Source: Hyphomicrobiales bacterium (lineage in GTDB: Bacteria > Pseudomonadota > Alphaproteobacteria > Rhizobiales > Beijerinckiaceae). From it: a DNA stretch of 64,000 nucleotides. The notes under the pieces are model-generated. The model made no database searches. It was not told the origin of the DNA and saw only the letters and a list, made by a program, of their open reading frames with translations. The DNA is taken from the NCBI GenBank assembly GCA_027489535.1, contig JAIXZO010000001.1:310001-374000 (forward strand), read 5' to 3'. Of this stretch, positions 38,021 to 55,623 are shown piece after piece (position 1 is the first letter of the stretch; each line of letters begins with the position of its first letter). The translations under genes were made by a program, and so were the position numbers.

Positions 38021-38041
38021 CGCCCCGTTTCGGGGCGTCTT
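38021..38041 (+). terminator. Intrinsic terminator after hbdA
   Basis: Arms CGCCCCG (38021-38027) and CGGGGCG (38031-38037) around a TTT loop, followed by TCTT. A second, stronger hairpin without a T-tract (GGCCGCC / GGGCGGCC) lies just before it at about 37984-38002. Together they probably end the etf-hbdA transcript. Confidence 0.6.
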
Positions 38042-38117
38042 CACATTGTCGTCTTGCGAGCGTTAGACTGTGCTTCGCCGAATGGTCCCTATCGGGATCC
38101 AACAGGGGAGTCGGTCG

Positions 38118-39181: not shown

Positions 39182-39759
39182 AGCAGCTTTCCGAGCGCCA
39201 CGAAACCGAGCACGACGACCGCGACCATTCCCGCCGCCACCGCCCCGAGGTTCTTTTCCACGAAGGCTTTTATCGGGCCTCCGAAGCGGTTGAACAGGCC
39301 CGCGAGAATGAAGAAACGTGCTCCGCGCGTGATGGCGGAGAGCAGGACGAAGAGCGGGAAATTGTAATCCATCGCGCCCGATACGATGGTGACCACCTTG
39401 TACGGGATGGGCGTCAGTCCCTTCACGAGAATGAAGGTCGCGCCCCATTCGGCATAGAAGGCGCGGACGGAATCGATCTTCGCACCGTAGCCGTAGAGGT
39501 TGAGCAGCCACAGCCCGACGCTGTCGAACAGCAGATGGCCGATCGCGTAACCCGCAACTCCGCCGCAGACCGAAGCCACCGTGCAGATCGCCGCGTAGTG
39601 GAAGGCCTTTTGCGGTCGCGCCAACGACATCGGCGCCAGCATCACGTCAGGCGGGACGGGGAAGAACGAGCTTTCGGCGAAGGAGACCGCGGCAAGCGCC
39701 CATGTGGCCCGAGGCCCGGCCGCAAGGGCGACCGTCCGGTCATAGAGGCGTCTCAGCAT
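39178..39759 (-). CDS. DedA/YqaA-family membrane protein
   Basis: A 193-residue SNARE-associated/VTT-domain membrane protein with about five hydrophobic helices. The FPVPPDVMLAPMSL loop near residue 37 and the FILVKGLTPIPYKVVTIVSG segment near residue 104 are typical of the YqaA branch, proposed to act in lipid flipping. It is translationally coupled to dsbB (overlap of one base). The ATG at 39759 is preferred over an upstream frame lacking conservation. Confidence 0.88.
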   Translation of the reverse strand: MLRRLYDRTVALAAGPRATWALAAVSFAESSFFPVPPDVMLAPMSLARPQKAFHYAAICTVASVCGGVAGYAIGHLLFDSVGLWLLNLYGYGAKIDSVRAFYAEWGATFILVKGLTPIPYKVVTIVSGAMDYNFPLFVLLSAITRGARFFILAGLFNRFGGPIKAFVEKNLGAVAAGMVAVVVLGFVALGKLL

Positions 39760-39910
39760 GAGGGCGGGCTCCCGGTGGGCTTCGTTCAATGCGCCGGCGG
39801 CTCTCCGGTTCCGGCCTCGCCCGCGCTTCTCGGCACGATGCACCGGCACGACTGAACAAGCGGTTTCCGTGCCTGCGTGCGTGACCCGCCGAGGTGCCGC
39901 GCGAATTGGA

Positions 39911-39995
39911 TGGTGCCCCTGGCCGGAATCGAACCAGCACTCCTTGCGGAAACCGATTTTGAGTCGGTCGCGTCTACCAGTTCCGCCACAGGGGC
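39911..39995 (-). tRNA. tRNA-Leu (anticodon CAA)
   Basis: The minus strand folds as an 85-base class II tRNA with the acceptor GCCCCTG paired to CAGGGGC, discriminator A and encoded CCA. The seven-base anticodon loop CTCAAAA gives anticodon CAA (leucine UUG codons). A long variable arm (CGGTTTCCGCAAGGAG region) and TTCGATTCC T-loop are present. Confidence 0.95.
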
Positions 39996-40191
39996 AACGC
40001 GCGGTGTTCTTACACCAGAGCGATGAGGTCGCCTAGATGGTCCGAAGTCTCCCGAGACGCTTTCCGCCTCCTCCCCCAGGACGCGCTTTCCGGCCTTTTC
40101 CCGCTCCAGCCCCATTGTTTGCCGAATTGTAAAAGGTGCGGTGATCCGAAGCGCCGAGCAAGGCGTAATCCCTTCATCTAGGGAGGCGTTC

Positions 40192-41064
40192 ATGGGCGAG
40201 ATCGCTGGGGTAAGGCGGACCTTCGTAAAGGCCGCGATGAATGCACCGTTCTTGACCCGCGAGGACGAGCATGCGCTTGCCGTCCGCTGGAAGGATCTCA
40301 AGGACGAACGTGCTCTGCACGCCCTGGCCGCGGCGCATATGCGCCTCGTCATCGCCATTGCGGCCCGTTTCCGGCATTACGGGCTCCCGATGGCCGATCT
40401 CATCCAGGAAGGTCACGTCGGCCTTCTCGAAGCCGGCGCCCGCTTCGATCCCGATCGTGAAGTCCGCTTCTCCACCTATGCGACTTGGTGGATTCGCGCC
40501 TCGATCCAAGACTACATCCTCCGCAATTGGTCCATCGTGCGCGGCGGCACCAGCTCCGCGCAGAAGGCGTTGTTCTTCAATCTTCGGCGCTTGCGTGCAC
40601 GTTTGACGCAGAGCGCGGCCGCGGACCCCAGCATCGACATCCACGGCAGCATCGCCGAGGCCGTCGGCGTGTCCCGCGCCGACGTCGCCTTGATGGAAGT
40701 GCGGATGTCCGGTTCCGACATGTCGCTGAATGCGCCTTTGACGGAAAGCGACGGCGCCGGTGCGAGCGAGCGCATGGACTTCCTCGTCGACACCGCGGCC
40801 TTGCCCGACGAGACGGTCGGCGACGCCATCGACTCGGAGCGTCGCGTCACATGGCTCCGTTCCGCCATGACGGTGCTTTCGGAACGCGAGCTCAACATTC
40901 TGCGCGCCCGCCGTCTCTCGGAGGAAAGCGCCACGCTCGAAGCTCTCGGCGACCGTTTGGGCATCTCCAAGGAGCGCGTCCGCCAGATCGAAAGCCGCGC
41001 GTTGGAAAAGCTGAAGCGGGCACTGATCGAGCAGTTTCCCGGCGTCCAACCCGCGCTCGTCTGA
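40192..41064 (+). CDS. rpoH: RNA polymerase sigma-32 family factor (RpoH)
   Basis: A 290-residue group 3 sigma factor. Region 2 (RLVIAIAARFRHYGLPMADLIQEG, positions about 59-82) precedes the sigma-32-specific RpoH box QKALFFNLRRLR near residue 124, and region 4 ends with the HTH segment LGISKERVRQIESRALEKLK near 256-275. Start ATG at 40192 has gggagg five bases upstream. Rhizobiales often have two or more RpoH proteins; this form lacks close identity to the main heat-shock type as far as can be judged, so it may be the second copy (oxidative stress). It is convergent with the M48 protease gene, three bases away. Confidence 0.88.
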   Translation: MGEIAGVRRTFVKAAMNAPFLTREDEHALAVRWKDLKDERALHALAAAHMRLVIAIAARFRHYGLPMADLIQEGHVGLLEAGARFDPDREVRFSTYATWWIRASIQDYILRNWSIVRGGTSSAQKALFFNLRRLRARLTQSAAADPSIDIHGSIAEAVGVSRADVALMEVRMSGSDMSLNAPLTESDGAGASERMDFLVDTAALPDETVGDAIDSERRVTWLRSAMTVLSERELNILRARRLSEESATLEALGDRLGISKERVRQIESRALEKLKRALIEQFPGVQPALV

Positions 41065-41067
41065 CGT

Positions 41068-42543
41068 CTATTCCGTCACGATCTTGTAGGAGCGCCCCGT
41101 CGTCACCGTGGGGCTTTCCAACCCGTTGAGCACGAGAAAGCGCTCGAGCGGTCGCTCCGTCGCCATGGCGCGAACGAAGGCCTCGGCCGTTTCGCCGCCC
41201 CGGGCCGTTACGCTGCGCAGCATCAACGGCCGAGCGCGCGCGGCTTCGTCCGCCGTCAGAATTCGGAAGCTGTCGAGCGTCGCACGAAAGCTGCGATCGA
41301 TGTCGGGCGTCAGTTCGCGCGCGGCGAAGATGAAGCGGTGCACCACGTCGCCCTGTCGTACCGCTGCAAGACGGAAGCTCCAATCCGAGCCTGCGGCTAT
41401 GGCGGTGGCTGCGGGCAGGCCGTTGACCATGAGGGTTTCCACCCTCCCCATGCTCACCCCGTCCATCCAGCCTCTGCCGATCACGTCCTCGGGCGATCCG
41501 CCGGCTTTGACGCTGTCGAAGCGAAGGGCCGCCGAACGGCCGGGGATGATGCCGATCACGGCTTGGGGAGAATTCTCCATCACGGTGCCATCGGGCGCGA
41601 CGAACGAAAAACCGAGCACGGGGTGGATGAAGCGTCGCTCGCGGATCAGCCCCGCTTGGGAATCGTCGCCATAGATGATGCCGTCGACGGCCGCCAACCA
41701 GGTCGCGCGTTCGGTCTCCCGGTCGGCGAGAACGCCTTTGGGTGCGGCGCGTGCGGCGGCCAGCGCCCTCTGCATGCGCTCGGGCGGGCTGGGATGGCTC
41801 GACAGGAAGTTCATACCTGACCGCTTGCGGGCTTCGCCCGTGGACGCGGCACGAAACGCAGCGTCTCGCCCGAGCGACTCGAGAAAACGCACGGCGCCGA
41901 ACGGATCGAACCCCGCTTTGGCCGTCATCATCACGCCGATTTCGTCGGCTTCGAGTTCCTGCGCCCTCGAGAACCCGGCAATCCCCACGCGATTGCGCAT
42001 TTGGATCAATTCGCTGCCCGCGCGGTCGTCGAGAACCTCGGCGACGACCTGTTCCACGATGGCCGACCGCCGTTCGAGTTCCGCGCGCTGCAGGGCGTGG
42101 CGCGCGGTGACGTGGGCCACCTCATGCGCCATGACCGCCGCGACCTCGGACGTGTCGTTGGCCAGCGCCAACAATCCGCGCGTGATGAACAGGTCGCCGC
42201 CGGGCAGCGCGAAGGCGTTGGGCGCCGGGGAATTCAGAATGGTGACGCGATAGCTGCGGCCCGGCTCGTCGCTCGCTGCCACAAGTCGGCGTACGACGTC
42301 GTCCAGCAAGGCGCGGACGGCCGGCGCGCGATACTCGCCCCCGAAGGTCGCCAGCAGCCGCGCGCGTTCCCGGTCGAAGCCCTGATCGACGCCCGTCCCG
42401 ACCAGCCGGGGAGCGGCTGACGGAATCAGCGTCTTTGCGGATTCGCCGGCGCAGCCGGCGAGAGCGAGCGCGCATGCCAAAGCGAGCGCGCGATGTGCGC
42501 GCTTGAACCGTCCCGCAATGCGGACGATGGCCGTTCCCCTCAC
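41068..42543 (-). CDS. M48-family zinc metalloprotease lipoprotein
   Basis: A 491-residue lipoprotein: lipobox L-A-G-C31, then a peptidase M48 domain with the zinc motif H140-E-V-A-H144 and the third-ligand segment QELEADEIG near residue 200. The C-terminal ~170 residues are a separate beta-rich domain of a type often fused to M48 proteases in alphaproteobacteria. Related proteins (BepA-type) degrade misfolded outer-membrane proteins. It ends three bases from the stop of the convergent sigma factor gene. Confidence 0.9.
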   Translation of the reverse strand: MRGTAIVRIAGRFKRAHRALALACALALAGCAGESAKTLIPSAAPRLVGTGVDQGFDRERARLLATFGGEYRAPAVRALLDDVVRRLVAASDEPGRSYRVTILNSPAPNAFALPGGDLFITRGLLALANDTSEVAAVMAHEVAHVTARHALQRAELERRSAIVEQVVAEVLDDRAGSELIQMRNRVGIAGFSRAQELEADEIGVMMTAKAGFDPFGAVRFLESLGRDAAFRAASTGEARKRSGMNFLSSHPSPPERMQRALAAARAAPKGVLADRETERATWLAAVDGIIYGDDSQAGLIRERRFIHPVLGFSFVAPDGTVMENSPQAVIGIIPGRSAALRFDSVKAGGSPEDVIGRGWMDGVSMGRVETLMVNGLPAATAIAAGSDWSFRLAAVRQGDVVHRFIFAARELTPDIDRSFRATLDSFRILTADEAARARPLMLRSVTARGGETAEAFVRAMATERPLERFLVLNGLESPTVTTGRSYKIVTE

Positions 42544-42718
42544 GCGTCCTGCTCCTCCGTCGACCGTGCGCCCGACGGATGACGTTTCATCGACGAAACC
42601 CTAAATGCCCCGCCCCGCCGCCACGTTCAACCCCGCCTTCCGCCCGAGCCGTTCCGGGCCGTAGCTCGCCCCGCGACACTGGAAGCCCCGTGTCCGGCAT
42701 GATATCTCCTGCGGGCGT

Positions 42719-42795
42719 GGTCCCGTAGCTCAGCAGGATAGAGCATCAGTTTCCTAAACTGAGGGTCACTGGTTCGAATCCAGTCGGGATCACCA
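42719..42795 (+). tRNA. tRNA-Arg (anticodon CCT)
   Basis: A 77-base class I tRNA with acceptor GGTCCCG paired to CGGGATC (one G.T pair), encoded CCA, D-loop TAGCTCAGCAGGATAGAGCA and T-loop GGTTCGAATCC. The anticodon loop TTCCTAA gives CCT (AGG arginine codons). It marks the left edge of the accessory-looking stretch that follows. Confidence 0.95.
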
Positions 42796-42998
42796 ATCTC
42801 TCCCCGTCGAAAACGCGGATGGAAGCCTTGGCGAGGTACGACGTCCCGTAGAATCCGAGCGACATTCCCGTGCGGGGGGGCACTAAGCTCATGATTTTTA
42901 GAATAGATTTGCCGACGCCATGCGACGAACATTGTGAAGATCAAAGATCCGGTTTAGTAGACTGTTCCCAACAAGATTGAATCTTGTACGGGCTGAAA

Positions 42999-43766
42999 AT
43001 GTTGAGGATTCAGAGTAGTATGGTTCGAGCGTTTCTCTTTGCGTGCTGCATCACGGTGACGTCCGGCATCCCGGCCGGTGCCGCCGATCTCGTCGGCAAC
43101 AAGGTCCCGTCCAAGACTGGTTCGGCGCCGCCGGCCGCGCCGCAACCAGCCGAGCATTGGGCGGGCTTCTATGCGGGCGCGCATGCGGGCTACGGCTTCG
43201 GGAACATCGAAGCTCGAGATCTCGAAGACGGCAGCAAGTTGAAATACGACAACACCGGTCTCACGGGCGGCGTTCATGCGGGTTACAACTTCACAACGGG
43301 ACCCTGGGTCCTCGGGCTCGAAGGCGAGATCAACGTCTCGGGCGTCGCCGGGAGGAAGTTCGATGCCGATACAGATGATTTTGGACAAGTCGAATCCGCG
43401 ACCCTCAAGACCTCGTTCCCTTGGCTCGCTTCCTTTGGTCCCCGCGTCGGTTACTCCGTCGGAAATGCGCTGTTGTATGCGGCCGGCGGTGTAGCCTTCG
43501 GTCAGGATCGCATGAAGGTGACCGAGAGCGACGGCGACAGCCAGAAAAAGACGGAAACTCGGATCGGTTTCAGCGTCGGCGGCGGTGTGGAATACGCGTT
43601 GGACAAGCGGTGGTCGGTCCGTTCGGACTACCGTTATTTCAACCTTGGTCGGAAAACCTATCGGGATTCGGATCCCGAAATCGGCGATCTAGGCGGAGTT
43701 CGACTCAAGGCGGACGCTCATACGATCCGCGTAGGTCTGACCTATTCGTTCGGGAGTATCCGCTGA
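42999..43766 (+). CDS. Outer-membrane beta-barrel protein (Omp31/Omp25-like)
   Basis: A 255-residue protein of the alphaproteobacterial Omp25/Omp31 porin-like family. A signal peptide ends near AGAADL, then the typical WAGFYAGAHAGYGFG motif opens the barrel (about residues 53-67), glycine/aromatic-rich strands follow and the C-terminal strand is IRVGLTYSFGSIR. In-frame starts at 42984 (TTG), 42999 (ATG) and 43020 (ATG) are all possible. The upstream 200 bases are AT-rich compared with the rest of the window. Function is probably structural or in host/envelope interaction. Confidence 0.85.
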   Translation: MLRIQSSMVRAFLFACCITVTSGIPAGAADLVGNKVPSKTGSAPPAAPQPAEHWAGFYAGAHAGYGFGNIEARDLEDGSKLKYDNTGLTGGVHAGYNFTTGPWVLGLEGEINVSGVAGRKFDADTDDFGQVESATLKTSFPWLASFGPRVGYSVGNALLYAAGGVAFGQDRMKVTESDGDSQKKTETRIGFSVGGGVEYALDKRWSVRSDYRYFNLGRKTYRDSDPEIGDLGGVRLKADAHTIRVGLTYSFGSIR

Positions 43767-43893
43767 CAGCAAGCCGTGGCTTCGGCCCCGGTTCGTTGTT
43801 CCGCCGGCAAGAGATTCGTTTCGAGATGATCAGAGCGGTGACGGAGAACCCGGATAGCTCTCGGGCTCCGAAACAGTTCGGAAGAGGCTAGTC

Positions 43894-44925
43894 ATGCGTT
43901 CCTTTGCCGTCGTTTTCATGCTGCTCGCGAGCCTCGCCGCTGCGTCGGCCCAGTCGATGTCGGACGAGGCCTTCGGCCGGCATGTCGGCGAACACTTCCG
44001 CAGCGGTTCCCCCTCGGGAAAGCATTCGGAGCTTGCGATAAGGGTCGTGGCGCTGCCGACCGGCGAATTGGTCGCTCCCCGTATCCCGGTTCCCGCCGCC
44101 GATGACGGTTGGGCGAATTCCCACCTTCTGATCGGCTGCAACGAGGCGGTCGAGACGAAGCCTTGGAGAGCCTATCGTCTCACCGCGAGTTCGAGCTTTA
44201 CGCATTTCGACGACACCGAGGCGTTCGAAACGCGGCAGGCGCCGCGCTTCGTCGTCATGTTGGAATCCTGCCGGCTGGAGGAAGAGGCAGCCGCGCCCGG
44301 CGATCCCGCCGCCCTGCGGGAACGGAACTTGGCGCTGCGCCACGCGCCCGAAAATCTTCACGTCGGCCCGACCTTCGTCTGCTCGGATCCGTCCAAATGT
44401 TCGGGTCTCGCCCGGACGGTTCTTGCAGAAAGCGCGGCTCCGCATCTGCTCGGCCCGGCAGACATCGCGTTGGTCCAGCCCTATCAGGTGCTTCGTCACG
44501 CATTTCCGGTGGACCGGCAAAAGCTGCGGGCGGAAAGCGGGGCCTTCACGGAGGCCGTCGTCAAGGAATGCCGGATTCCGAAACGCATCACCGCCGAAAA
44601 TCCCCACGGCAACCCCGAAGGCACGGAACGCTATGCGCCGTGCATCGCGAAGGCCTATGAGCGTCAACGCGGGATCTGGTTGAATGCCGTCGCCGCCCTT
44701 CCCACGGCCGGCGCGCTTGAAGAGGCGCGCCGGCCTGCCGTCGAACATCGTTTCCTGCAATTCCTGCTGAAGTTTCACGGCTATTTGCCGGAGACCACCC
44801 GGATCGACGGCGCCTACGGGGAGGCGACGCGGACCGCCGTCGTCGCCGCGCAGACCGCGGCGGGCCTGCCGACCGACGGCTTCATGAGCGACGCTCTGGC
44901 TCGCCTGCTCGAAAGCAAGCCGTAA
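43894..44925 (+). CDS. Secreted protein with C-terminal peptidoglycan-binding domain
   Basis: A 343-residue exported protein of unknown function. A signal peptide covers residues 1-19 (cleavage after SAAS/AQS). The middle (residues ~20-260) is not recognised; the cysteines (IGCNEA, ESCRLE, VCSDPSKC, KECRI, APCIAKAYERQRGIWL) suggest disulfides, and the last of these segments resembles LprI/DUF1311-type sequences. The final ~55 residues (FLKFHGYLPETTRIDGAYGEATRTAVVAAQ) form a PG_binding_1 domain. It probably sits at the cell wall. Confidence 0.7.
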   Translation: MRSFAVVFMLLASLAAASAQSMSDEAFGRHVGEHFRSGSPSGKHSELAIRVVALPTGELVAPRIPVPAADDGWANSHLLIGCNEAVETKPWRAYRLTASSSFTHFDDTEAFETRQAPRFVVMLESCRLEEEAAAPGDPAALRERNLALRHAPENLHVGPTFVCSDPSKCSGLARTVLAESAAPHLLGPADIALVQPYQVLRHAFPVDRQKLRAESGAFTEAVVKECRIPKRITAENPHGNPEGTERYAPCIAKAYERQRGIWLNAVAALPTAGALEEARRPAVEHRFLQFLLKFHGYLPETTRIDGAYGEATRTAVVAAQTAAGLPTDGFMSDALARLLESKP

Positions 44926-45160
44926 GCTTTCGGGACGCGTCCTTGAACGTTCAGCCGATTGCACAGTCCTCGGCGTCTTTCTTTTCGGTGACGTGGGTGC
45001 TCAAGCTCTCGTGACCCCCCATCGAATTTTCTCCGTTCCAACGCCCGGAGGGGCCGTTGAAACTCATGGAGGCAGGGAGTGACGTCTTCTCACTCTCCTG
45101 AATCCTGCGGCATGAATATTGCTGCGCCGTCCGTTCAATTTCGTTTCGATTGGACGGGAC

Positions 45161-47719
45161 ATGGTCGCGATCACGCCGGGATATCGGATTTCCCCTGCCG
45201 CCATAACGACGAAGGCCGGCAACATCATCGCGATGCCCGCCCCCAAGACGTCCGCCGTCAAGGTTCAGCTCTCGCCGGCTGCAAAGGGCATATCGGCGCT
45301 TCAGACCGTCACGTTTTCCGACCTCACCTCCGGCAAATTCGACCTGAGCAGCCGGGAGAAAATCCAGAAGGTCTTCGCTCGCCCGATCACCGTCGATCTC
45401 CGAAAGGCATTGTCGTCGATCGCCGAGGATCCGGCATTGCGCGATGCGCTCAAGTCGCTGGCCGATGCGGGCCGTCTCGGCAGCCTCAAGGGCCAAGGCG
45501 TCGACGTCGTCACGCCGGGCCAGGTCGAATTGTTGAGCAGCGACGTCATCGCCAAACTGGAAGGCACGCTCGACGTCAGACTGTCGGGCGAGGCCTCCGG
45601 CACCGCAGTCTACGCGCCCGTTCTCAACGCGATCGCGACTGCCGGAAAGGTTTCCGTCGTCTCCACGGCCTCTCCCTTCGCAAATTATCCGGTCAGCTTG
45701 GAGCAGTTGACGGCCGCCGGGCCCGCCTTCTGGGGTCGTTTCAAGGGAAATCTCGAAATCAAGGGAACGGCCGATCTCTTCGGGTCACAAGCGGGCTGGA
45801 CCGCGGTGACCACGCTCGACAATTTCAGGAACGCGAAATACGCCCTGACGCAGGCGGACGGCGTCACGCCCGTCGCGTCGAAGGACGCCAAGCTTTCGCT
45901 GACCTACGCGCAATTCGTCAAAGGCCGACACCTCATCGCGAAGTTCAACGCGGCTCCGGCCGTGTCGGTCACCGACGTACCGGCAATTCGGGCCTTGGAG
46001 GTTGCATCGCTCGCAGGCGTCGCATCGGTTTCCGTTCGCGACAAAGCTTCCGAGATCGTAAAATACGGCAGCGAGCTGGAACGTCTTTCCGTCCGTGACA
46101 AGTTGGGTGCCGTCACGTCCGCGATGGGCGAGGATTTGAGACTCTCGGGGAAACAGCTCGAACGCATGCCGACCGCGCTCGGCAAATTGAGCAATGCGTC
46201 GTTTTACGTGTCGGACGGCCCTTTCTCGCCGAAGACCTACGCGAAAATAACGCAAAGCACGGCGGAGCGTATGGCCTCGCGGGTCGATCTTTCAGGTCCG
46301 TATTTGGAAATAGAGTCGTCGTTCGACGCGATCGCCACGCTCGACGCGGCGGGGAAGCTCGGCAACATCACCGTTGCGGGCCGGTTCCCGGAGGCCGTCA
46401 GCATCCCTGCAACCTCTCTGGCCCGCGGTGGAGCGGCCATGGAGCGGCTTCTGGCGGCAGCGCCGTCGTCCACGAAAATTCAACCCACGGGTTCGGCAAG
46501 CGTGGCGGAAGCCCTCGCCGTTCTCGATCGTCCGGCGCTGAGGGATCGACTGCCCAAGGGTGCCCTGTCGATCGTCGAGGACGGGTCGACGCTGCCTTCC
46601 TCGGGCTTCGTGGACCTCGCGACGACCGCATCGGACAAAATCCGCAAGCTTGCCGTCACGGGGCCGTTGCGGGTCGCTCAGCTCGCCGACCTTCAGGGGA
46701 CGGCCTTCGCGGACAAGGTCGTCGGGCTCCGCATTGCGGACGATATCCGGTCCATAGCTGCGTCGACGGCCGATTTCACAGGTCCGATGATCGGATCGAT
46801 CGAAGCTCAGGGGATTCTGCCGCTGGACGAACTGGCTTCGTTCGCGACCTCCTCGGACGTGCAAGCGGCAGCAAAACTCTCGAAAATCGCGAGCGGAATC
46901 CGTGTCGCGGGTCCGGCCGCGGATCTCGCAGGCGGCACCGGAAGCGCGGCAGACCTTGTTCGAAAGGCCGCGGGCGCCGACAAATTGCGCCTGTTGACGG
47001 TCACGGACGTGTCGCCGTCCGGGACCGGCGCTTTCGATTGGTTGTCTTCGGGGACGCCCAAGATCAGGCATGCATTGGAGATCGTCGGGACTTCAACTCA
47101 AATTCTCGACGGCAAAGAGGCGATCCGCGCGCGCGCCGCGGCAGGCAACGTCTCTGCCGTCAAAATCACGAACGCGGTGACGCCCGCCGATCTCGCGCAA
47201 CTCGATTGGGTGCCGGCCACCGGCGTAGCACTGTCCGTGCCGGTAGTCGGAACGGCCGCCGCCGTCATGGCGGACGCCCCGGCCCTCGTTCAAGCCGCAC
47301 GCAACGGCAGTCTCGCCTCATTGGCGATCGACGGTGCGCTTCCGTTGACTGCGGCGCCTTCGCTCGGTCCGGCCGTTCTCGGCTTGGTCGCCGGCGGCAC
47401 GCTTCTGTCGGGAACGCCCTCGGACGCCCTCGCGAGCATGGACGCGTTGTCGGATCGGGCGCTGCTTTCGACGATAGCGCAGATCCGACTCACCGGTTCG
47501 ATGATGCCGTCCGATCTCGCGAAGTTCGAGACCGGCGTCTTGGCCAAGACGACGGATTTCCGGATCGTCGGCTCGGCGTCCGAAGTCATCGGGATCATGG
47601 GTCAACTCGATGCCTTCGCCGCCGGAGGAAGGCTTCTCGACGTTGCGATCGTGGGTCCGCTGAGCGTTGCGGATCGGGCCAAATTCACCGCTTCGGTGCT
47701 CGACAAGCTCTCGTCGTGA
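45161..47719 (+). CDS. Large protein of degenerate ~52-residue repeats, function unknown
   Basis: An 852-residue protein I do not recognise. It has no signal peptide, no membrane helix and no cysteine that I can see. From about residue 280 to the end it is built of degenerate units with a conserved hydrophobic-x-hydrophobic-x-G/D core: FYVSDGPFS (near 348), ITVAGRFPE (402), LAVTGPLRV (496), IEAQGILPL (547), LTVTDVSPS (612), VKITNAVTP (666), LAIDGALPL (721), IRLTGSMMP (776) and VAIVGPLSV (828), roughly every 51-55 residues, each followed by a helical stretch. The fold could be a beta-helix or solenoid adhesin-like array. The start is uncertain (TTG at 45119, ATG 45161 or ATG 45233). Confidence 0.7.
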   Translation: MVAITPGYRISPAAITTKAGNIIAMPAPKTSAVKVQLSPAAKGISALQTVTFSDLTSGKFDLSSREKIQKVFARPITVDLRKALSSIAEDPALRDALKSLADAGRLGSLKGQGVDVVTPGQVELLSSDVIAKLEGTLDVRLSGEASGTAVYAPVLNAIATAGKVSVVSTASPFANYPVSLEQLTAAGPAFWGRFKGNLEIKGTADLFGSQAGWTAVTTLDNFRNAKYALTQADGVTPVASKDAKLSLTYAQFVKGRHLIAKFNAAPAVSVTDVPAIRALEVASLAGVASVSVRDKASEIVKYGSELERLSVRDKLGAVTSAMGEDLRLSGKQLERMPTALGKLSNASFYVSDGPFSPKTYAKITQSTAERMASRVDLSGPYLEIESSFDAIATLDAAGKLGNITVAGRFPEAVSIPATSLARGGAAMERLLAAAPSSTKIQPTGSASVAEALAVLDRPALRDRLPKGALSIVEDGSTLPSSGFVDLATTASDKIRKLAVTGPLRVAQLADLQGTAFADKVVGLRIADDIRSIAASTADFTGPMIGSIEAQGILPLDELASFATSSDVQAAAKLSKIASGIRVAGPAADLAGGTGSAADLVRKAAGADKLRLLTVTDVSPSGTGAFDWLSSGTPKIRHALEIVGTSTQILDGKEAIRARAAAGNVSAVKITNAVTPADLAQLDWVPATGVALSVPVVGTAAAVMADAPALVQAARNGSLASLAIDGALPLTAAPSLGPAVLGLVAGGTLLSGTPSDALASMDALSDRALLSTIAQIRLTGSMMPSDLAKFETGVLAKTTDFRIVGSASEVIGIMGQLDAFAAGGRLLDVAIVGPLSVADRAKFTASVLDKLSS

Positions 47720-47925
47720 CAGCAGCAAAATCTTCGGTGACCGGCAGGTCCTGAAATGATTGCGGCGTCTGAATCATAGTCTCCGGAAGCAATCGGTGCG
47801 AGCCGTCGGCGAGATCGTCCCAATCCGGGTCTCCAAACGGATATTGCGCCCATCATTGTCTGGATTTGCATCGAGAGACGATTGCATATGAAGATCGCTG
47901 TATTGCTCTCCGGGAGACCGACGTC

Positions 47926-48678
47926 GTGGACGCACTGAAGAAGATCTTGCTGGCTGCGTTGCTCGCCTTTGCGCCCGTCGCGTCTTGGGCCTGCAGCGGG
48001 CCGGATTGCGCCGGAACGCTTGCATACGAGGCGTTCGGCGACGTCAAATCTCCCAAGAGCCTCGTCGTCTTCCTTCACGGTTCCGTGTCCGCGGGCGGTC
48101 CTGCCGACTACATGTACGGCCCGGCGCGGCGGTTCGCGGAAGCTCATCCCGACGTCGTGGCGGTCGCGCTTCTCGCCCCCGGCTATTACGACCGCAAGGG
48201 CAAGCGCAGCGCGGGTTCGGACGCCGGCCGCCGTCTGTCCGACGATACGGACGAGATCATTCCGGCGCTCGAAGAGCTCCGCCGACGCTACAAGCCCCGC
48301 AAGATGTTCGTGTTCGGCCATTCTAAGGGCGCGATGAACATGGGCGGCGTCCTGGCCAAAAAGCCCGGTCTCGCGGACGGCGCAGTTCTGCTGGCCGGCA
48401 TCTACGACATTCCCGCGCTCGCCGAATATCGCCGCCGCGCGCAAAACGGCGTGTCCACCATCGACATGGTGAACCGTATCCCGAAAAGCGCACGCATCGT
48501 TCTGGTGCATGGCGACGTGGACAAGGACGTGCCGCTTTCGCAATCCGTCGACTTCGAGAAGAAGGCAAAGGCTGCCGGCGTGCAGGTCCGCCTGATCGCC
48601 CTCGAAGGGGTCGGGCACGATTTCAACGGCCCGCTCTCGGCGACCGGGATTGACGCGCTCGACGCGCTCGTGCGCTGA
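47926..48678 (+). CDS. Secreted alpha/beta hydrolase (dienelactone-hydrolase/esterase-like)
   Basis: A 250-residue alpha/beta hydrolase with an N-terminal signal (DALKKILLAALLAFAPVASWA) starting at a GTG with cgggag nine bases upstream. The oxyanion loop HGSVSAGG (about 51-58), nucleophile S133 in GHSKGA, acid in HGDVDKDVP and histidine in EGVGHDF are all present. Two cysteines (C23, C28) after the signal may form a disulfide. Substrate is unknown; the secreted location suggests extracellular or periplasmic ester hydrolysis. Confidence 0.82.
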   Translation: MDALKKILLAALLAFAPVASWACSGPDCAGTLAYEAFGDVKSPKSLVVFLHGSVSAGGPADYMYGPARRFAEAHPDVVAVALLAPGYYDRKGKRSAGSDAGRRLSDDTDEIIPALEELRRRYKPRKMFVFGHSKGAMNMGGVLAKKPGLADGAVLLAGIYDIPALAEYRRRAQNGVSTIDMVNRIPKSARIVLVHGDVDKDVPLSQSVDFEKKAKAAGVQVRLIALEGVGHDFNGPLSATGIDALDALVR

Positions 48679-48706
48679 TGCCCCGCAACACCCGCGCGTG
48701 AACAAG

Positions 48707-50377
48707 ATGCGGCCGTCCGGCAAATCGGTGAAGTCCGCCATCGGCTCCGCAGGGCGCGGCGCCGTCGGCGCGGTCATGCATCTCGATCAGATCGTCAGCT
48801 TTCTGAAGAACACGGCTGTGCTGTTCTTCTTCGCGATGATGGCTCCCTTCGTCTACAATCTGCTCAGCAAGAGCACGATCGTGGTGCAGGAGGTCTCGGT
48901 CCCGCAGGATCTCGAAGCGCGCGGTTTGACCGGCCGCGTCTTCTCCCAGCGCGTGATCGACAAGATCCTGGAAATCGCCAACTACACCGAGCTGCTCAAG
49001 GAGCGCGAGGACGTCTACGGCCTCGCCAAGAAGAACCAGCGACCCGACATCGATCTTCCGATCACCGTCTTCGGCATCAATTTCGAAACGCTGTTGAGCT
49101 TCCTCAAGACCGCCGCCGGCGGGCAGGACATCCGCGTCGTGGGCGAAGTCGTCACGGAGCTTCCGGCCGACGAGGAAAAGAAGACCCCCGCGAAATACGG
49201 CGTGCGCTTCCGCGTCGCCAAGGTCGGCACGGTCTATCGCAGCGCCGCGCCCACCGCGACGCTGGACGAGCTCGCGGACAAGGCCGCCTTCGGGGTGATG
49301 GAGGAATATGAGCCCATCACCATGGCCTATTATTATCGCGGCAAGCGCGATTTCGAGAACGCCTTCCGCATGACTGAAAAGGCGCTGCTGAAGCGCCGGC
49401 CCGGCGATGAGGTGTGGGCGCACTTCCTGCGCGGGCTGATCGAGAGCGATCAGGGCCGCTGGAAATCCGCCGAGGAAGAATTTCGCTTCGTGCTGGAGCG
49501 CAATCCGGATTTCCCGCGGGCACGCAGCAATCTGAGCCGCGTTCTGCGCCGGGGAGGAGACCTGCCGGCGGCCTTGGAAGAGGCCGAGCGCGCCCTCGTC
49601 TCCGAGTCGACCCTGTTCCAGAGCTATCACAACAAGGCCTTGGCGCTCGTCGGCCTGAACCGTCATGACGAGGCGCTGGTCTGGCTGAAGAAGGCGGAGG
49701 AGGTCGATTCGACGAGCGAGCTCGTCCAGCTCGAACTGGCGGATTTCTACCGCTCGCGCGCGGGCGCGCAGGAACTCGCCCTCAAGCATTACCGCCTCGC
49801 CGCCGACCTGAAACCGGACAATTCGCGCATCTACGCCAATTGGGCGGGGATGCTGGGCGATCTCGGGCGCTGGGACGAGGCCGAAAAGGTCACGCTGAAG
49901 GCCCTCTCCTTCAACGCCAGGAACGGTATCGCGCTCGGTTATCTCGGCTACATCGCGTTGGAGCGTCGGGACATCGTCAAGGCGCAGCGGTTCTATACCG
50001 AGGCCTATGCCGCCGACCCCACTTACTTCCGCGCGCATATCGGGCTGGGGCGGGTCGCGATGGCGGAGAGGGATTTCGGCAAGGCCGAGGAGCTTTTCGC
50101 CCGCGCCTTGGCGGAAAGCCCGCGCTGGTGGGACATCTTCAAATTCCAAGGCGATCTGATGTTGCTGCGCGGACGCCACGACGAGGCCGAGGCGAAATGG
50201 AAGCGAGCCTTGGAGATCAATCCCCGCGCCGCCGACGTCGAAGCCCGCTTCGCGCATCTTGCACTTCATCGCGGCGACGAGGCGAAGGCGCAGCGGCATG
50301 CCGCCCGCGCCGCGCAGATGTCGCCCGGGTTGTTCAAGGATGCCGAATACGTTTTGAAGACGTGGGAGATCCACTGA
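48707..50377 (+). CDS. Membrane-anchored TPR protein
   Basis: A 556-residue protein with an N-terminal membrane helix (VSFLKNTAVLFFFAMMAPFVY, about residues 29-49), then an unrecognised domain (to ~ residue 205) and about ten tetratricopeptide repeats in the C-terminal 350 residues. The repeats end in typical AxYxA- and GRHDEAEAKWKRALEINPRA-type sequences. The start is unclear; GTG 48698, ATG 48707 and ATG 48776 are all possible. It probably acts as a scaffold in the inner membrane with the TPRs in the periplasm or cytoplasm. Confidence 0.78.
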   Translation: MRPSGKSVKSAIGSAGRGAVGAVMHLDQIVSFLKNTAVLFFFAMMAPFVYNLLSKSTIVVQEVSVPQDLEARGLTGRVFSQRVIDKILEIANYTELLKEREDVYGLAKKNQRPDIDLPITVFGINFETLLSFLKTAAGGQDIRVVGEVVTELPADEEKKTPAKYGVRFRVAKVGTVYRSAAPTATLDELADKAAFGVMEEYEPITMAYYYRGKRDFENAFRMTEKALLKRRPGDEVWAHFLRGLIESDQGRWKSAEEEFRFVLERNPDFPRARSNLSRVLRRGGDLPAALEEAERALVSESTLFQSYHNKALALVGLNRHDEALVWLKKAEEVDSTSELVQLELADFYRSRAGAQELALKHYRLAADLKPDNSRIYANWAGMLGDLGRWDEAEKVTLKALSFNARNGIALGYLGYIALERRDIVKAQRFYTEAYAADPTYFRAHIGLGRVAMAERDFGKAEELFARALAESPRWWDIFKFQGDLMLLRGRHDEAEAKWKRALEINPRAADVEARFAHLALHRGDEAKAQRHAARAAQMSPGLFKDAEYVLKTWEIH

Positions 50378-50492
50378 GATCCCGCCGGCGCCGCGGCCCC
50401 ACTTTCCCCGAGGCGGGGAAGAGTGCTAAGCCGCGCGGGTTGCGCTCGTACATTCCGCGCGCGGCCCCGTTTCAACCAGCGCGAGGCGTTGC

Positions 50493-50807
50493 ATGTTCAC
50501 TCTTCTCATCGGCAAGAAGCCCGTGGCGGTCATCGACGCGCCCGAGTCCGACGCCCGCGAATTGCTCGAGCAGGACGAGTTCCACGAGGATCTCGGCGAG
50601 CTCATGAGCGAAGGCAAGCCGCTCTGGAACGGCCGCGAAAAGCTTACGCTTCGTCCCTCCACCGAGGAGGAAGTTCAGGAGTTCGAGCAGGGCGCGTTCG
50701 ACGACGACGACGAGGAGGACGATGAAGAGCTCCTCGAAGGCGCGACCGTCTATTTCCTCGTCCCGATCGACGACGACGAGGACGAAGACGAAGAAGACGC
50801 CGGCTGA
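50493..50807 (+). CDS. Small acidic protein of unknown function
   Basis: A 104-residue protein starting MFTLLIGKKPVAVIDAPES, with a compact N-terminal half and a C-terminal stretch of almost pure Asp/Glu (residues 69-81 and 92-102). It is not recognised as a domain family. It starts 115 bases after the TPR gene and is followed directly by an intrinsic terminator. The polyacidic tail suggests interaction with a basic partner or divalent cations. Confidence 0.7.
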   Translation: MFTLLIGKKPVAVIDAPESDARELLEQDEFHEDLGELMSEGKPLWNGREKLTLRPSTEEEVQEFEQGAFDDDDEEDDEELLEGATVYFLVPIDDDEDEDEEDAG

Positions 50808-50814
50808 CGACCTC

Positions 50815-50843
50815 GGCGGACCTCCGTTCGGAGGTCCGCCTTT
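50815..50843 (+). terminator. Intrinsic terminator after the acidic protein gene
   Basis: Perfect 11-base arms GGCGGACCTCC (50815-50825) and GGAGGTCCGCC (50830-50840) with a GTTC loop and a TTTC tail. It lies between the acidic protein gene and the convergent dehydrogenase gene. Confidence 0.85.
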
Positions 50844-50864
50844 CGTCCCTTCAAGTCGTCCCGA

Positions 50865-51776
50865 TCAGCTCTTGCCGCCCTTGCCGTCGCCCCGGTCGAT
50901 GCCCGCGAGGCGTTCGGCGATCAGGCACACGGATGCGGTATCCAACTCCGCTCCGCCCTGCGAATAGGCCGCGTAGTAGTACTGCGAGGCAGCCGCGAAC
51001 ATCGGCAGGGGTGCGCGCACCTCGCGTCCGAAATCCGAGATGATCGAGAGATCCTTCAGATGGGTCTTCACGGTAGCGGTAACGTTGTCGTAGCGCCCCG
51101 CCACCATCTGCGGTCCGCGCACTTGGAACATGCGGCTCGAGCCCGCGCTGTCCTGCAGCACGTCATATATCAGCGACGGATCGAGCCCGGCCTTCTGCCC
51201 GTAGGCGAAGGCTTCCGCCGCGGCCACGTTGTGGATGGTCACGAGGTGGTTGGCCAGAAACTTCATCTTGCTGCCGTGCCCGAAGGGGCCGACATAGACC
51301 TGCTTGCGCGACATGCCCTCGAACACGGCCGCGCATTTGCGGTAGGCCGCCTCGTCGCCCGAACCGAGCACCACGAGATCCTTCACGGCCGCCTGCGCGC
51401 CCGTGCCCGAGACGGGGCAATCGAGCAGGATCTGCCCTCCCGCCTGCATCGCGTCATGCGCGCGGGTCTTCACGTCCAGCGACATCGTGCTCATCTCGAT
51501 GGCGACCAGCCCCTTGCGGGCGGAGGTCTGCAGGCCCGAAGGGCCGGCCGTCACGTCGTCCAGCGCCGCCGGGGTCGGCAGCGACAGGATCGCCACGTCC
51601 ACCGCATCGGCCACCTCGCGCGGGGAGCCGACCACCTCGCCGCCCAGCGCCTTCAACGCCGCCTTCGCGGGTTCGGACACGTCGAAACCGACGACGCGAA
51701 AGCCCGCGGCGCGCAAGTGCTTGGCCATCGCCCCGCCCATGATGCCCAACCCGACGACGCCTACCACCTTGTCCAT
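50865..51776 (-). CDS. NAD(P)-dependent beta-hydroxyacid dehydrogenase (tartronate-semialdehyde-reductase type)
   Basis: A 303-residue enzyme with GLGIMGGAMA (residues 10-19) as Rossmann motif, the substrate loop DCPVSGTGAQA near residue 120 and the catalytic lysine segment GSKMKFLANH near 170. It differs clearly from the family member at 700-1626, including the SGTG substrate loop. It probably acts on a short 3-hydroxy acid, and the adjacent uptake and enolase-superfamily genes support a sugar-acid catabolic role. The downstream (right) 350 bases hold no gene. Confidence 0.85.
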   Translation of the reverse strand: MDKVVGVVGLGIMGGAMAKHLRAAGFRVVGFDVSEPAKAALKALGGEVVGSPREVADAVDVAILSLPTPAALDDVTAGPSGLQTSARKGLVAIEMSTMSLDVKTRAHDAMQAGGQILLDCPVSGTGAQAAVKDLVVLGSGDEAAYRKCAAVFEGMSRKQVYVGPFGHGSKMKFLANHLVTIHNVAAAEAFAYGQKAGLDPSLIYDVLQDSAGSSRMFQVRGPQMVAGRYDNVTATVKTHLKDLSIISDFGREVRAPLPMFAAASQYYYAAYSQGGAELDTASVCLIAERLAGIDRGDGKGGKS

Positions 51777-52124
51777 GCGTTCATTCCCTCATCATTGCAG
51801 AAGCCGGATCATCGCCCGGTCGATCACGCCCGTCCGGGGACGAGCCCCGCCGAGAATGCCGACGCTACCACGCGGCCGCGCAAGAGGAAGGAACGTCGGC
51901 GCACGCCCGGCATGCGGGAGCGGGGCGGGACGACGTCCCGCGAAGCTCAAATATGCGTCAGTCCGCCCCGTTCGGGTGCAGCGGCCGCCTCGGGCGTGAT
52001 CGGTATGACGCCATTTCCGGCCGCCGAGCCCTGCTGCGACCCCTGAAACAAAGCGGCGCATGGCGCGGCATGAATTCTGCCTTGCTTCATCCGGGCCGAG
52101 AGTCGGCCGGATGGGAAGTGCAGC
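51777..52124. other. Intergenic region with a leader hairpin upstream of the peptide-binding protein gene
   Basis: No gene is supported in this 348-base gap between divergent genes. Just before the receptor gene, 52088-52113 folds into a hairpin (CATCCGG / CCGGATG outer arms and GCCGA / TCGGC inner arms with a three-base loop). It lies 12 bases from the start codon and could influence translation or mRNA stability. No canonical promoter was evident. Confidence 0.5.
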
Positions 52125-53798
52125 ATGAAGACCGTTCTGGATCAGATTTCATCGCGCGTCGCGGCGCGGGACGCGGACCGTGGCCGGCGCGGTTTCCGCA
52201 CGGGTTCGCTGTTGGCAGGCGCGCTCTTGTCCGCCCTTCTGGCCGGTGCGGCCGTACCCGCACAGGCGCAGGGCACCTTGCGCATCGGCATGACCGCGGC
52301 CGACATTCCCCTGACGACGGGTCAGACCGACAACGGCGGCGAGGGCCAGCGCTTTCTCGGCTTCACCGCCTATGACGCCTTGGTGAACTGGGACCTTTCG
52401 AGTGCGACCAAGCCGTCCGAACTCGTCCCCGGCCTCGCCGCGTCATGGTCGGTGGATGCGACGGACAAGACCAAATGGACCTTCAAGATGCGGCCGGGCG
52501 TGAAGTTTCACGACGGCAGCGACTTCACCGCCGAGGCGGTGGCGTGGAACCTCGACAAGCTCTTGGTGCAGACCGCGCCGCACTATGATCCGCGCCAATC
52601 GGCGCAGGGCCGCTCGCGCATTCCCGCAGTGGCGAGTTGGCGCGCGGTGGACGCGCTGACTTTGGAAATCGTCACCAAGGTGCCGGACGCGACGCTGCCC
52701 TATCAGCTCGCTTGGATCATGATCTCCTCGCCCGCCAATTGGGAGAAGCAGGGCAAGAGCTGGGAGAACGTCGCCAAGTCGCCGTCGGGCACCGGCCCGT
52801 GGAAGATCGTCAATTTCGTCCCGCGCGAGCGCGTCGAACTCGTCCCGAACCCGGATTATTGGGACAAGGCCCGCGTGCCCAAGCTCGACCGCCTCGTGCT
52901 CATCCCGTTGCCGGAGGCGAACACCCGCACCGCCGCGCTGCGCTCGGGTCAGGTCGATTGGATCGAGGCCCCGGCCCCCGATGCGGTACCCTCGCTGAAG
53001 AAGGCGGGTTTCGACATCGTCACCAATTCCTACCCTCACAACTGGACTTGGCATTTCTCCCGCGTCGAAGGCTCGCCGTGGAACGACGTGCGCATCCGCA
53101 AGGCTGCCAATCTCGCGGTCGACCGCGAGGGCCTCAAGGAATTGCTCGGCGGCCTCATGATTCCGGCCGAAGGCTTCTTCCCGCCCGGCCATCAATGGTT
53201 CGGCAAGCCGAGCTTCAAGGTCACGCGCGACGTCGCCGCCGCGAGGAAGCTGATGGCCGAGGCCGGTTACGGCCCCGACAAGCCGCTCAAGACCAAGATC
53301 ATGATCTCGACCTCCGGTTCCGGCCAGATGCAGCCGCTGCCGATGAACGAGTTCGTGCAGCAGAACCTCGCCGAGATCGGGATTCAGGTCGAGTTCGAGG
53401 TGCTGGAATGGAACACGCTGATCACCACTTGGCGTGCGGGCGCGAAGCATGAAAGCTCCGCCGGCCGGTCCGGCATGAATTACAGCTACTTCATCCAGGA
53501 CCCCTTCACCGGCTTCATCCGCCATCTGCAATGCAATCTCGCCCCGCCGGCCGGCACCAATTGGGGTTATTACTGCGACCCGGAGATGGACAAGTTGTTC
53601 GACGGCGTCCGCAACACGTTCGACCCCGCGGCGCAGACGGCCATCCTGCAGAAGATCCACGAAAAATACGTCGACGAGGCGCTGTTCCTGATGATCACGC
53701 ATGACGTCAACCCGCGTGCGATGAGCACCAAGGTGAAGGGCTTCGTGCAGGCGCAGAACTGGTTTCAGGACTTCTCCCCGATCACGATGGCCAAGTGA
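52125..53798 (+). CDS. ABC transporter substrate-binding protein, peptide/nickel family (SBP_bac_5)
   Basis: A 557-residue periplasmic receptor. A long signal peptide ends near AQAQG (residue 48), then the family 5 fold with FTAYDALVNWD, PGLAASW, FKMRPGVKFHDG and FTAEAVAWNLD motifs typical of dipeptide/oligopeptide or opine-binding proteins. No ABC permease or ATPase genes are adjacent in the window, so it is an orphan here. Its gene is followed by an intrinsic terminator at 53845. Confidence 0.88.
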   Translation: MKTVLDQISSRVAARDADRGRRGFRTGSLLAGALLSALLAGAAVPAQAQGTLRIGMTAADIPLTTGQTDNGGEGQRFLGFTAYDALVNWDLSSATKPSELVPGLAASWSVDATDKTKWTFKMRPGVKFHDGSDFTAEAVAWNLDKLLVQTAPHYDPRQSAQGRSRIPAVASWRAVDALTLEIVTKVPDATLPYQLAWIMISSPANWEKQGKSWENVAKSPSGTGPWKIVNFVPRERVELVPNPDYWDKARVPKLDRLVLIPLPEANTRTAALRSGQVDWIEAPAPDAVPSLKKAGFDIVTNSYPHNWTWHFSRVEGSPWNDVRIRKAANLAVDREGLKELLGGLMIPAEGFFPPGHQWFGKPSFKVTRDVAAARKLMAEAGYGPDKPLKTKIMISTSGSGQMQPLPMNEFVQQNLAEIGIQVEFEVLEWNTLITTWRAGAKHESSAGRSGMNYSYFIQDPFTGFIRHLQCNLAPPAGTNWGYYCDPEMDKLFDGVRNTFDPAAQTAILQKIHEKYVDEALFLMITHDVNPRAMSTKVKGFVQAQNWFQDFSPITMAK

Positions 53799-53844
53799 TC
53801 GCTCTCGGGACTGCGGTTCGCATGTCCCCGCATGATGATGTTGC

Positions 53845-53875
53845 CCCTCCGCGCCGCCCGCGCGGAGGGTTTTTT
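53845..53875 (+). terminator. Intrinsic terminator after the peptide-binding protein gene
   Basis: Nine-base arms CCCTCCGCG (53845-53853) and CGCGGAGGG (53861-53869), seven-base loop, followed by a six-T tract. Strong canonical terminator. Confidence 0.9.
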
Positions 53876-53904
53876 CCCGCTTTGCCGGGCCGGGCGGTGA
53901 ACGC

Positions 53905-54555: not shown

Positions 54556-54640
54556 CCGCTTCGGTTCAAAGCCCGTTTCGAGTTGTCCGACCCGCATCCG
54601 CGCCCTAGCTTGAACGCAACGAAAGTCGGGGAGGACATAC

Positions 54641-55618: not shown

Positions 55619-55623
55619 TCGAG

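What the first reader, a model, noticed from the sequence alone, without database searches (positions are those of the whole stretch)
45161..47719. An 852-residue protein of ~52-residue degenerate repeats with no recognised family
From about residue 280 on, a short strand-like motif (hydrophobic-x-hydrophobic-x-G/D, e.g. LAVTGPLRV, LAIDGALPL, VAIVGPLSV) recurs about every 51-55 residues at residues ~348, 402, 496, 547, 612, 666, 721, 776 and 828, with a helical stretch rich in Ala/Leu between. The protein has no visible cysteine, signal or membrane helix. It lies among secreted and envelope genes. Periodic arrays of this type occur in large bacterial surface or secreted proteins, but the unit here is too diverged for me to name.
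Basis: partly seen in the sequence, partly recalled or inferred. Interest (0 to 1): 0.6.

Follow-up and report, generated by a model that had tools for sequence, protein, structure and literature searches.

The report
LRR-like beta-alpha solenoid with export-type leader
A rhizobial-order bacterium makes an 852-residue protein built from about two dozen short strand-helix repeats, predicted to coil like a leucine-rich-repeat protein although its sequence fits no named repeat family, behind a floppy acid-free front end of the kind found on flagellar and injected proteins; it is probably an exported binding scaffold, but that is not shown.

Summary
AlphaFold2 gives alternating strands and helices with a median strand spacing of 28 residues; two types alternate, so a pair spans about 55. 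Repeats start near residue 76-94, not 280. A repeat model built without this protein scores it 72 bits against at most 8.4 for 1000 shuffles. Pfam and NCBIfam find nothing. For residues 74-480 (pLDDT 82) Foldseek ranks leucine-rich-repeat (LRR) proteins first, but the best structural Z is only 5.2 and the canonical LRR motif is absent. I count relatives in 16 of 397 sampled family (Beijerinckiaceae) genomes; a same-genus one (55% identity) has a long ALTTAQ-repeat tail. In 13 proteins the first 50 residues hold 3 acidic residues of 650, against 781 of 9088 later; there is no Sec signal or RTX repeat. This fits a flagellar or injectisome (type III) leader, and the genome encodes both machines, though not near this gene. 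Motility genes lie near the gene in 3 of 10 carrier loci read; co-occurrence with flagellin shows no excess. Best reading: an exported LRR-like binding scaffold. The fold is moderately secure; route and target are inferred.

The parts
45161..47719 (+). CDS of the 852-aa LRR-like solenoid protein (P0001), stop included
   Evidence: start supported by alignment with the same-genus relative, which has a Met at that place; purine-rich ggacggga at 45152-45159 just upstream (inference)
45161..45379 (+). residues 1-73: disordered leader; no Asp/Glu in residues 1-50; putative export signal
   Evidence: pLDDT <50 for 1-73; composition
45380..46600 (+). residues 74-480: confident part of the beta-alpha solenoid
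   Evidence: AlphaFold2 pLDDT 82.1, pTM 0.72; Foldseek LRR matches
46601..47716 (+). residues 481-852: continuation of the solenoid, low to medium confidence (much of 527-578 and 769-798 under pLDDT 50)
   Evidence: repeat-model matches
45440..45598 (+). repeat-model match, residues 94-146
   Evidence: 13.8 bits
45623..45763 (+). repeat-model match, residues 155-201
   Evidence: 5.1 bits
45863..45988 (+). repeat-model match, residues 235-276
   Evidence: 14.6 bits
46031..46225 (+). repeat-model match, residues 291-355
   Evidence: 15.7 bits
46310..46450 (+). repeat-model match, residues 384-430
   Evidence: 13.0 bits
46631..46696 (+). weak repeat-model match, residues 491-512
   Evidence: 1.2 bits
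46949..47020 (+). weak repeat-model match, residues 597-620
   Evidence: 2.9 bits
47081..47191 (+). repeat-model match, residues 641-677
   Evidence: 9.4 bits
47243..47356 (+). repeat-model match, residues 695-732
   Evidence: 7.7 bits
47408..47500 (+). very weak repeat-model match, residues 750-780
   Evidence: -0.6 bits
47564..47713 (+). very weak repeat-model match, residues 802-851 (strand-helix-strand-helix in the model)
   Evidence: -1.0 bits

Best explanation
The gene encodes a stand-alone, non-enzymatic binding scaffold. Residues 74-852 form a beta-alpha solenoid of about two dozen strand-helix units of about 28 residues, in which two unit types alternate (hence the 52-55 residue appearance); its stacked strands would offer an extended recognition surface, as in leucine-rich-repeat proteins. 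Residues 1-73 are a disordered leader, acid-free over residues 1-50, not a Sec signal, and most likely address the protein to a type III export gate. For the family as a whole the flagellar gate is the likelier one, giving an extracellular or flagellum-associated scaffold; injection by the injectisome, possible in this genus, is treated as a rival. Shown: the frame, its repetition, its relatives and the leader's composition. Predicted: the fold. Inferred: the route, the binding function and the location outside the cell.
For: Repetition: repeat model 72.2 bits against a maximum of 8.4 in 1000 shuffles. Fold: strand/helix alternation; median spacing 28 over 23 intervals between strands that I picked by hand from the model, 28 also without the two intervals that span poorly predicted stretches (range 19-39). 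Foldseek with the domain ranks LRR proteins first: 8xi3 (mouse SCMC complex, E 3.9e-4, prob 0.92), NOD2 5irm (prob 0.97), NLRC4, NLRP2, a Legionella LRR protein 4q62 (prob 0.54), RNase inhibitor 3tsr (prob 0.69). Leader: 3 acidic of 650 residues in the first 50 of 13 proteins (this one included, with none) against 781 of 9088 in the rest; of 43 window genes 5 have <=1 acidic residue in the first 50, one of them this gene. The disordered leader is kept: 16 of its first 26 residues are identical in the same-genus relative, overall identity 55%. Published type III signals: >10% Ser in the first 50, no acidic residues in the first 12, aliphatic/Pro at position 3 or 4 (PMC3338616, abstract); flagellar and stand-alone systems seem to share the signal (PMC2690842, passages). 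Machines present: three flagellin-N matches, two FHIPEP genes, HrcV over its cut-off, needle protein, type III ATPase and SctS-family protein, five CesT hits. Position: in G155 a relative lies in a same-strand run with a Sel1 protein, a small conserved gene, MotA, MotB, MotB; in G119 within about 6 kb of MotA; in G012 2.9 kb from a flagellin gene.
Against: The genome's own copy, on C19, is on another contig than its flagellin, FHIPEP and CesT matches. Flagellin is not enriched among carriers: 13 of 16 against 293 of 381 others. HrcV over cut-off in only 2 of 16 carriers, and G004 (same genus, both machines) has no match. Serine in the first 50 residues is 4 (8%), below the published 10%; the source paper itself found the rules not absolutely required. 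The fold rests on 4-sequence alignments; the best structural Z of the domain is 5.2, below the 7 to 8 that the aligner's note calls typical even for models without a clear match; the whole-protein model's first four Foldseek hits were methionine synthase chains with TM 0.08, and its best Z, 7.2, fell on the less well predicted part. No canonical LRR motif. In 7 of 10 carrier loci read (G000, G046, G053, G067, G095, G154, G193) I saw no motility gene, by eye, in stretches of about 8-18 kb.
Confidence: 0.5

Rival explanations
1. It is a type I-secreted surface adhesin of the giant-repeat kind: exported through a PrtD/HlyD/TolC channel by a C-terminal signal.
For: The genus has PrtD-type exporters over the curated cut-off (G000: C9:69703, C5:22468); no Cys and no Sec signal; two giant relatives (L052 1137 aa, a fragment; L054 1066 aa) carry 13 and 9 repeat units.
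Against: No RTX nonapeptide in 18 of 18 proteins, four of them fragments; those exporters lie on other contigs; C-termini of relatives share no obvious signal (by eye); the shared odd feature is at the N-terminus.
Confidence: 0.15
2. It is an effector injected into a eukaryotic host or protist by the injectisome, with an LRR-like recognition domain.
For: An injectisome cluster with HrcV, needle, ATPase and SctS-family protein, and five CesT-type chaperone hits in the own genome; acid-free leader with Ile at position 4; LRR-bearing type III effectors exist (GALA proteins, PMC2244805, passages).
Against: 14 of 16 carriers lack HrcV over the cut-off; no CesT hit on the gene's contig; single copy with no catalytic domain found.
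Confidence: 0.17
3. It is a cytoplasmic scaffold or inhibitor that is never exported; the leader is merely a disordered tail.
For: No direct evidence of export; several of the LRR matches (NOD2, NLRC4, RNase inhibitor) are cytoplasmic proteins (recalled); motility genes near the gene in only 3 of 10 loci read.
Against: At most one acidic residue in the first 50 in 13 of 13 proteins although most of those aligned share only 20-24% identity with P0001, unlike 38 of 43 genes of the window; no Cys in 16 of 18 proteins.
Confidence: 0.18

Closest known systems
Ribonuclease-inhibitor-type leucine-rich repeats (RI-LRR: RNase inhibitor, NLRs)
   Same: Predicted strand-helix units of about 28 residues in a solenoid, two unit types alternating (the A/B alternation of RNase inhibitor is recalled, not tested); top Foldseek matches of the confident domain.
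   Different: No LxxLxLxxN motif (0 matches); instead LxxLxLx[G/D], 11 matches against 2.8 +/- 1.6 in shuffles, and 8 in the same-genus relative (8 of 2000 shuffles reach that); no Pfam LRR match; structural Z at most 5.2; bacterial, whereas RI-LRRs are described as metazoan (PMC2244805, passage).
GALA-LRR / CC-LRR type III effectors
   Same: Bacterial LRR-type solenoid with a possible type III address.
   Different: GALA repeats are 24 and CC-LRR repeats 26 residues, with F-boxes in GALA proteins (PMC2244805, passages); here about 28 residues, alternating, and no Pfam F-box found.
ALTTAQ repeat (Pfam PF20080)
   Same: The same-genus relative in G046 continues from about where P0001 stops into an ALTTAQ array (14 matched stretches, 342.6 bits).
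   Different: Absent from P0001; the ALTTAQ period is 8 residues (by eye) instead of 28.
Unnamed giant repeat proteins of related genomes (L052 in G030, L054 in G533)
   Same: Share the repeat: a model built from them alone finds P0001 (16.8 bits, shuffles at most 8.3); L054 has the same acid-free leader.
   Different: More regular arrays: 13 units in L052, median spacing 89.5 residues, perhaps three short units each (inference).

Membership tests
Leucine-rich repeat superfamily | LxxLxLxxN(x)L strand motif in each repeat | tested here: not met
   0 matches in P0001 and in its same-genus relative
Leucine-rich repeat superfamily | 20-30 residue strand-helix (or strand-loop) units stacked in a solenoid | tested here: met
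   predicted only; median spacing 28 of hand-picked strands
Leucine-rich repeat superfamily | match to an LRR sequence profile | tested here: not met
   Pfam 0 families at E<=10 for P0001; LRR_EndoS only below cut-off in the tail of P0002 and in L052
Leucine-rich repeat superfamily | structural superposition on LRR proteins | tested here: inconclusive
   Foldseek prob 0.92-0.97 for the first three rows, 0.54-0.90 in LRR rows further down; VIA Z at most 5.2, 138 residues, 4.2 A
Type III (flagellar or injectisome) substrates | no acidic residue in the first 12 positions | tested here: met
   none in the first 50 of P0001; rule from PMC3338616, abstract
Type III (flagellar or injectisome) substrates | aliphatic residue or Pro at position 3 or 4 | tested here: met
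   Ile4 in P0001 and in its same-genus relative
Type III (flagellar or injectisome) substrates | more than 10% Ser in the first 50 residues | tested here: not met
   4 of 50 in P0001
Type III (flagellar or injectisome) substrates | export that depends on FlhA/SctV | not testable with these tools
   needs deletion mutants
RTX / type I secreted repeat proteins | GGxGxDxxx nonapeptides | tested here: not met
   0 in 18 of 18 proteins, P0001 among them
RTX / type I secreted repeat proteins | PrtD-type exporter next to the gene | tested here: not met
   the matches over the curated cut-off are on C9 and C5, the gene on C19
Sec-secreted or autotransported proteins | N-terminal signal peptide | tested here: not met
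   by hydropathy only: highest 19-residue mean in the first 60 residues 0.74; no signal-peptide predictor was run
ALTTAQ repeat proteins (PF20080) | match over the gathering score 26.4 | tested here: not met
   none in P0001; met by P0002, 342.6 bits

The most novel reading that the evidence does not exclude
An LRR-like fold with its own sequence signature (LxxLxLx[G/D], alternating 28-residue units) arose or drifted beyond recognition in Beijerinckiaceae and is exported through type III machinery by a shared acid-free leader. Some members sit beside motility genes or are fused to octapeptide ALTTAQ tails whose giant relatives are encoded beside flagellar genes, so the family would be a new class of flagellum-associated (in this genus perhaps injected) recognition proteins.
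Probability: 0.2. Interest if true: 0.72.

Novelty: new variant of a known kind. Interest (0 to 1): 0.45.

Why it matters
If right, it adds an unnamed LRR-like repeat class that the profile libraries searched here miss, with a leader signature that could be used to look for further exported proteins in a family of Rhizobiales. It would also tie the ALTTAQ repeats, for which the one text search by that name found no paper, to flagella, and give the injectisome of this genus a candidate substrate to test.

Tried and rejected
Enzyme family: rejected, no Pfam or NCBIfam match and no PDB sequence match better than E 0.31; the first Foldseek hits of the whole-protein model (methionine synthase chains) have TM 0.08 and rmsd near 29 A, and the VIA rows at about 526-803 (best Z 7.2) fall on the less confident part. 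PHROGs, four proteins: two matches, at E 0.093 (P0001) and 0.052 (L052). Plasmids: no match with P0001 or L052. Phages: no match with L054; P0001 itself was not searched there. A first scan of genome contigs with P0001 confirmed no relative.

Spread: the 852-aa query found 11 of 199 family genomes, the own one included, of which G083 was dropped (a stop inside the match, other ORFs there). The 9-row alignment found 22 of 397, own included; I count 16 carriers and dropped 6: G030 and G533 (giant proteins with the more regular repeat) and G027, G094, G140, G181 (in one search I read no convincing repeat protein on the match strand there). Order: 1 of 297, the own genome. A single-unit model gave 0 of 96 class genomes, but the own genome did not ring either, so this shows nothing. 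I recalled that such repeats are common in large proteins of other Alphaproteobacteria; no call confirmed it.

Flagellar association by co-occurrence: tested and not found (13 of 16 against 293 of 381). Of the three carriers without a flagellin match, G067's copy is interrupted by an in-frame stop, and G672 and G676 are 63 and 67% complete; too few to mean anything. Synteny between the window (36001-56000) and the G046 locus by blastn: only the gene itself aligns.

Literature searches: ALTTAQ (0 papers), PF20080 (7 papers, unrelated by title), DTAANI/L/V (1 paper, unrelated by title), type III signal rules, Beijerinckiaceae with type III (4 papers; of PMC4322706 I saw passages: type III contigs of a lichen metagenome assigned to Methylobacteriaceae and others), LRR with type III effector and solenoid.
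Full report
THE OBSERVATION. The frame at 45161-47719 (+) translates to 852 residues, is the only match in its genome of 3.42 Mb in 22 contigs, and is protein-coding by the codon-position pattern of differences from its same-genus relative (0.349/0.221/0.530). No Pfam or NCBIfam family matches it, and no PDB sequence better than E 0.31. Simple autocorrelation is weak (z 3.25 at lag 28, 2.42 at lag 53, best of 139 lags), so I built repeat models from relatives. One trained only on two giant proteins at other loci (L052, L054; 22 units) scores P0001 16.8 bits against at most 8.3 in 1000 shuffles.

WHAT THE UNIT IS. AlphaFold2 on a 4-sequence alignment gives mean pLDDT 68.1 and pTM 0.46, with ten-residue means of 78-96 over residues 191-470 and disorder for 1-73. 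I picked 24 strand starts by hand from the model, leaving out secondary strands and two poorly predicted stretches; their median spacing is 28 residues, the same without the two gaps (range 19-39). Two kinds of unit alternate in much of the protein: one with a short V.V.G/D strand and a split helix, one with LxxLxLx[G/D] (by eye). Units begin at residue 76-94. The domain 74-480 alone gives pLDDT 82.1 and pTM 0.72.

FOLD. Foldseek with that domain ranks LRR proteins first: 8xi3 (mouse SCMC complex; the chain is NLRP5 by recall), NOD2, NLRC4, NLRP2, a Legionella LRR protein, RNase inhibitor (E 3.9e-4 to 4.8e-3; probabilities 0.92-0.97 in the first three rows, 0.54-0.90 in the LRR rows after them). 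One designed protein stands among them, and TIM barrels and other beta-alpha folds follow. The second aligner gives Z 5.2 at best (138 residues, 4.2 A), lower than the 7 to 8 its note gives as typical for models without a clear match. The canonical LRR motif is absent; the variant LxxLxLx[G/D] occurs 11 times (2.8 +/- 1.6 in shuffles, none of 2000 reaching it) and 8 times in the same-genus relative (8 of 2000 shuffles reach that). So it probably works like an LRR solenoid, but membership is not shown. Handedness was not measured.

RELATIVES. Within the GTDB family, which three named records place in Beijerinckiaceae/Rhizobiales, 16 of 397 genomes carry a relative by my count (22 rows, 6 dropped). 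The closest, in the same genus (P0002, G046, 55% identity), runs on from about where P0001 stops into an array of ALTTAQ octapeptides (PF20080, 342.6 bits; start near residue 880 of 1286). The third genome of the genus, G004, shows no copy. The seven others aligned share 20-24% identity with P0001. The G046 neighbourhood is not that of the window.

THE LEADER. In 13 proteins with a readable start, P0001 among them, the first 50 residues contain 3 acidic residues of 650 against 781 of 9088 elsewhere; P0001 has none. Among 43 genes of the window picked by GC-frame signature (which includes this one, with a longer start) the mean is 4.47 and 5 have at most one: this gene, and four that by eye have a hydrophobic or lipoprotein-like stretch or a doubtful start. 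In the 18 proteins the highest N-terminal hydropathy is 1.10; 16 of 18 lack Cys; none has RTX repeats. Four of the 18 (P0006, L045, L046, L052) are fragments without their true start. Published type III signals lack acidic residues and are Ser-rich (PMC3338616 abstract; PMC2690842 passages), and the second paper states that flagellar and stand-alone systems seem to share the signal. P0001 meets two of the three published compositional rules and misses the serine rule (4 of 50). The first paper itself reports that the rules are not absolutely required.

THE MACHINES. The genome has three flagellin-N matches on contig C22, one FHIPEP gene on C22 and a second on C7; the C7 one passes the HrcV cut-off. 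In the same stretch of C7 lie a needle-family protein, a type III ATPase and an SctS-family protein, and there are five CesT-family hits in the genome. It therefore has an injectisome cluster as well as flagellar genes. PrtD-type exporters over the cut-off are on C9 and C5. The gene is on C19. In G155 a relative is in a same-strand run with a Sel1 protein, a small conserved gene, MotA, MotB and MotB (the MotA/MotB names there by likeness to the G119 genes tested). In G119 it is within about 6 kb of MotA, and in G012 2.9 kb from a flagellin gene. These are 3 of 10 carrier loci read over about 8 kb or more; in the other 7 I saw no motility gene by eye. G155 and G119 belong to one genus and are not independent. 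Co-occurrence with flagellin is 13 of 16 against 293 of 381, no excess; HrcV over cut-off is in 2 of 16.

MECHANISM. I commit to an exported, non-enzymatic LRR-like binding scaffold addressed by its acid-free leader to a type III export gate, flagellar more likely than injectisome for the family as a whole (0.5). Rivals are type I secretion (0.15), injection as an effector (0.17) and a cytoplasmic scaffold (0.18). The fold taken alone I hold at about 0.75 on prediction only.

NOVELTY. No profile in the libraries searched covers the repeat, and text searches for a motif of it, for ALTTAQ and for PF20080 found nothing relevant by title. I rate it a new variant of a known kind: LRR-like in predicted architecture, different in signature, with an unusual leader. 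The weak points are the thin alignment behind the models, the low structural scores, and an export route that rests on composition and on gene order in a few relatives.

Noticed in passing
G000:C15:148012-152788 (L032) and G000:C22:1-7361 (L033): A giant ALTTAQ-repeat frame runs off one contig end (1592 aa) and another starts a second contig (2453 aa), probably one gene cut by assembly. A GT41 (O-GlcNAc-transferase-type) glycosyltransferase gene precedes it, and flagellin, FlgL-like and FlgK genes begin within about 15 kb after it on C22.
   Followed up: partly
L034 and L078 (G119:C2:40000-76000): Similar arrangement in another genus: sugar-activation genes (by eye), flagellins, FliD, a GT41 and a GT4 glycosyltransferase, a 2184-aa ALTTAQ frame, then MotB/MotA. 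ALTTAQ giants may be glycosylated flagellar accessory proteins.
   Followed up: partly
L076:3334-3864 (-) and L017:2266-2754 (-): A small conserved protein (39% identity over 158 residues) near flagellar or motility genes in two genera; no Pfam match in one, a weak WaaY match in the other.
   Followed up: partly
G000:C7:350000-389800 (L087, L088): An injectisome gene cluster in a Beijerinckiaceae genome (HrcV, needle, ATPase, SctS family); HrcV over cut-off in 23 of 397 family genomes.
   Followed up: partly
L077:10327-13383 and 13408-13920 (-): A large protein with an ABC1/kinase-like domain beside a CesT-type chaperone gene: a candidate type III substrate.
   Followed up: no
L015:15229-17184 (+): A matrixin/reprolysin-like protein near a relative of P0001, with a similar V-L-I-R-L-S-A-E-A motif near its N-terminus.
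   Followed up: no
L018:3341-5377 (G067): The relative is interrupted by an in-frame stop, in a genome estimated 100% complete without a flagellin match.
   Followed up: no
L065/L066 (G012, G053) and the g28 relatives: These relatives carry an inserted domain of roughly 110 residues between units (alignment columns about 360-490) that P0001, P0002, P0006 and P0007 lack.
   Followed up: no
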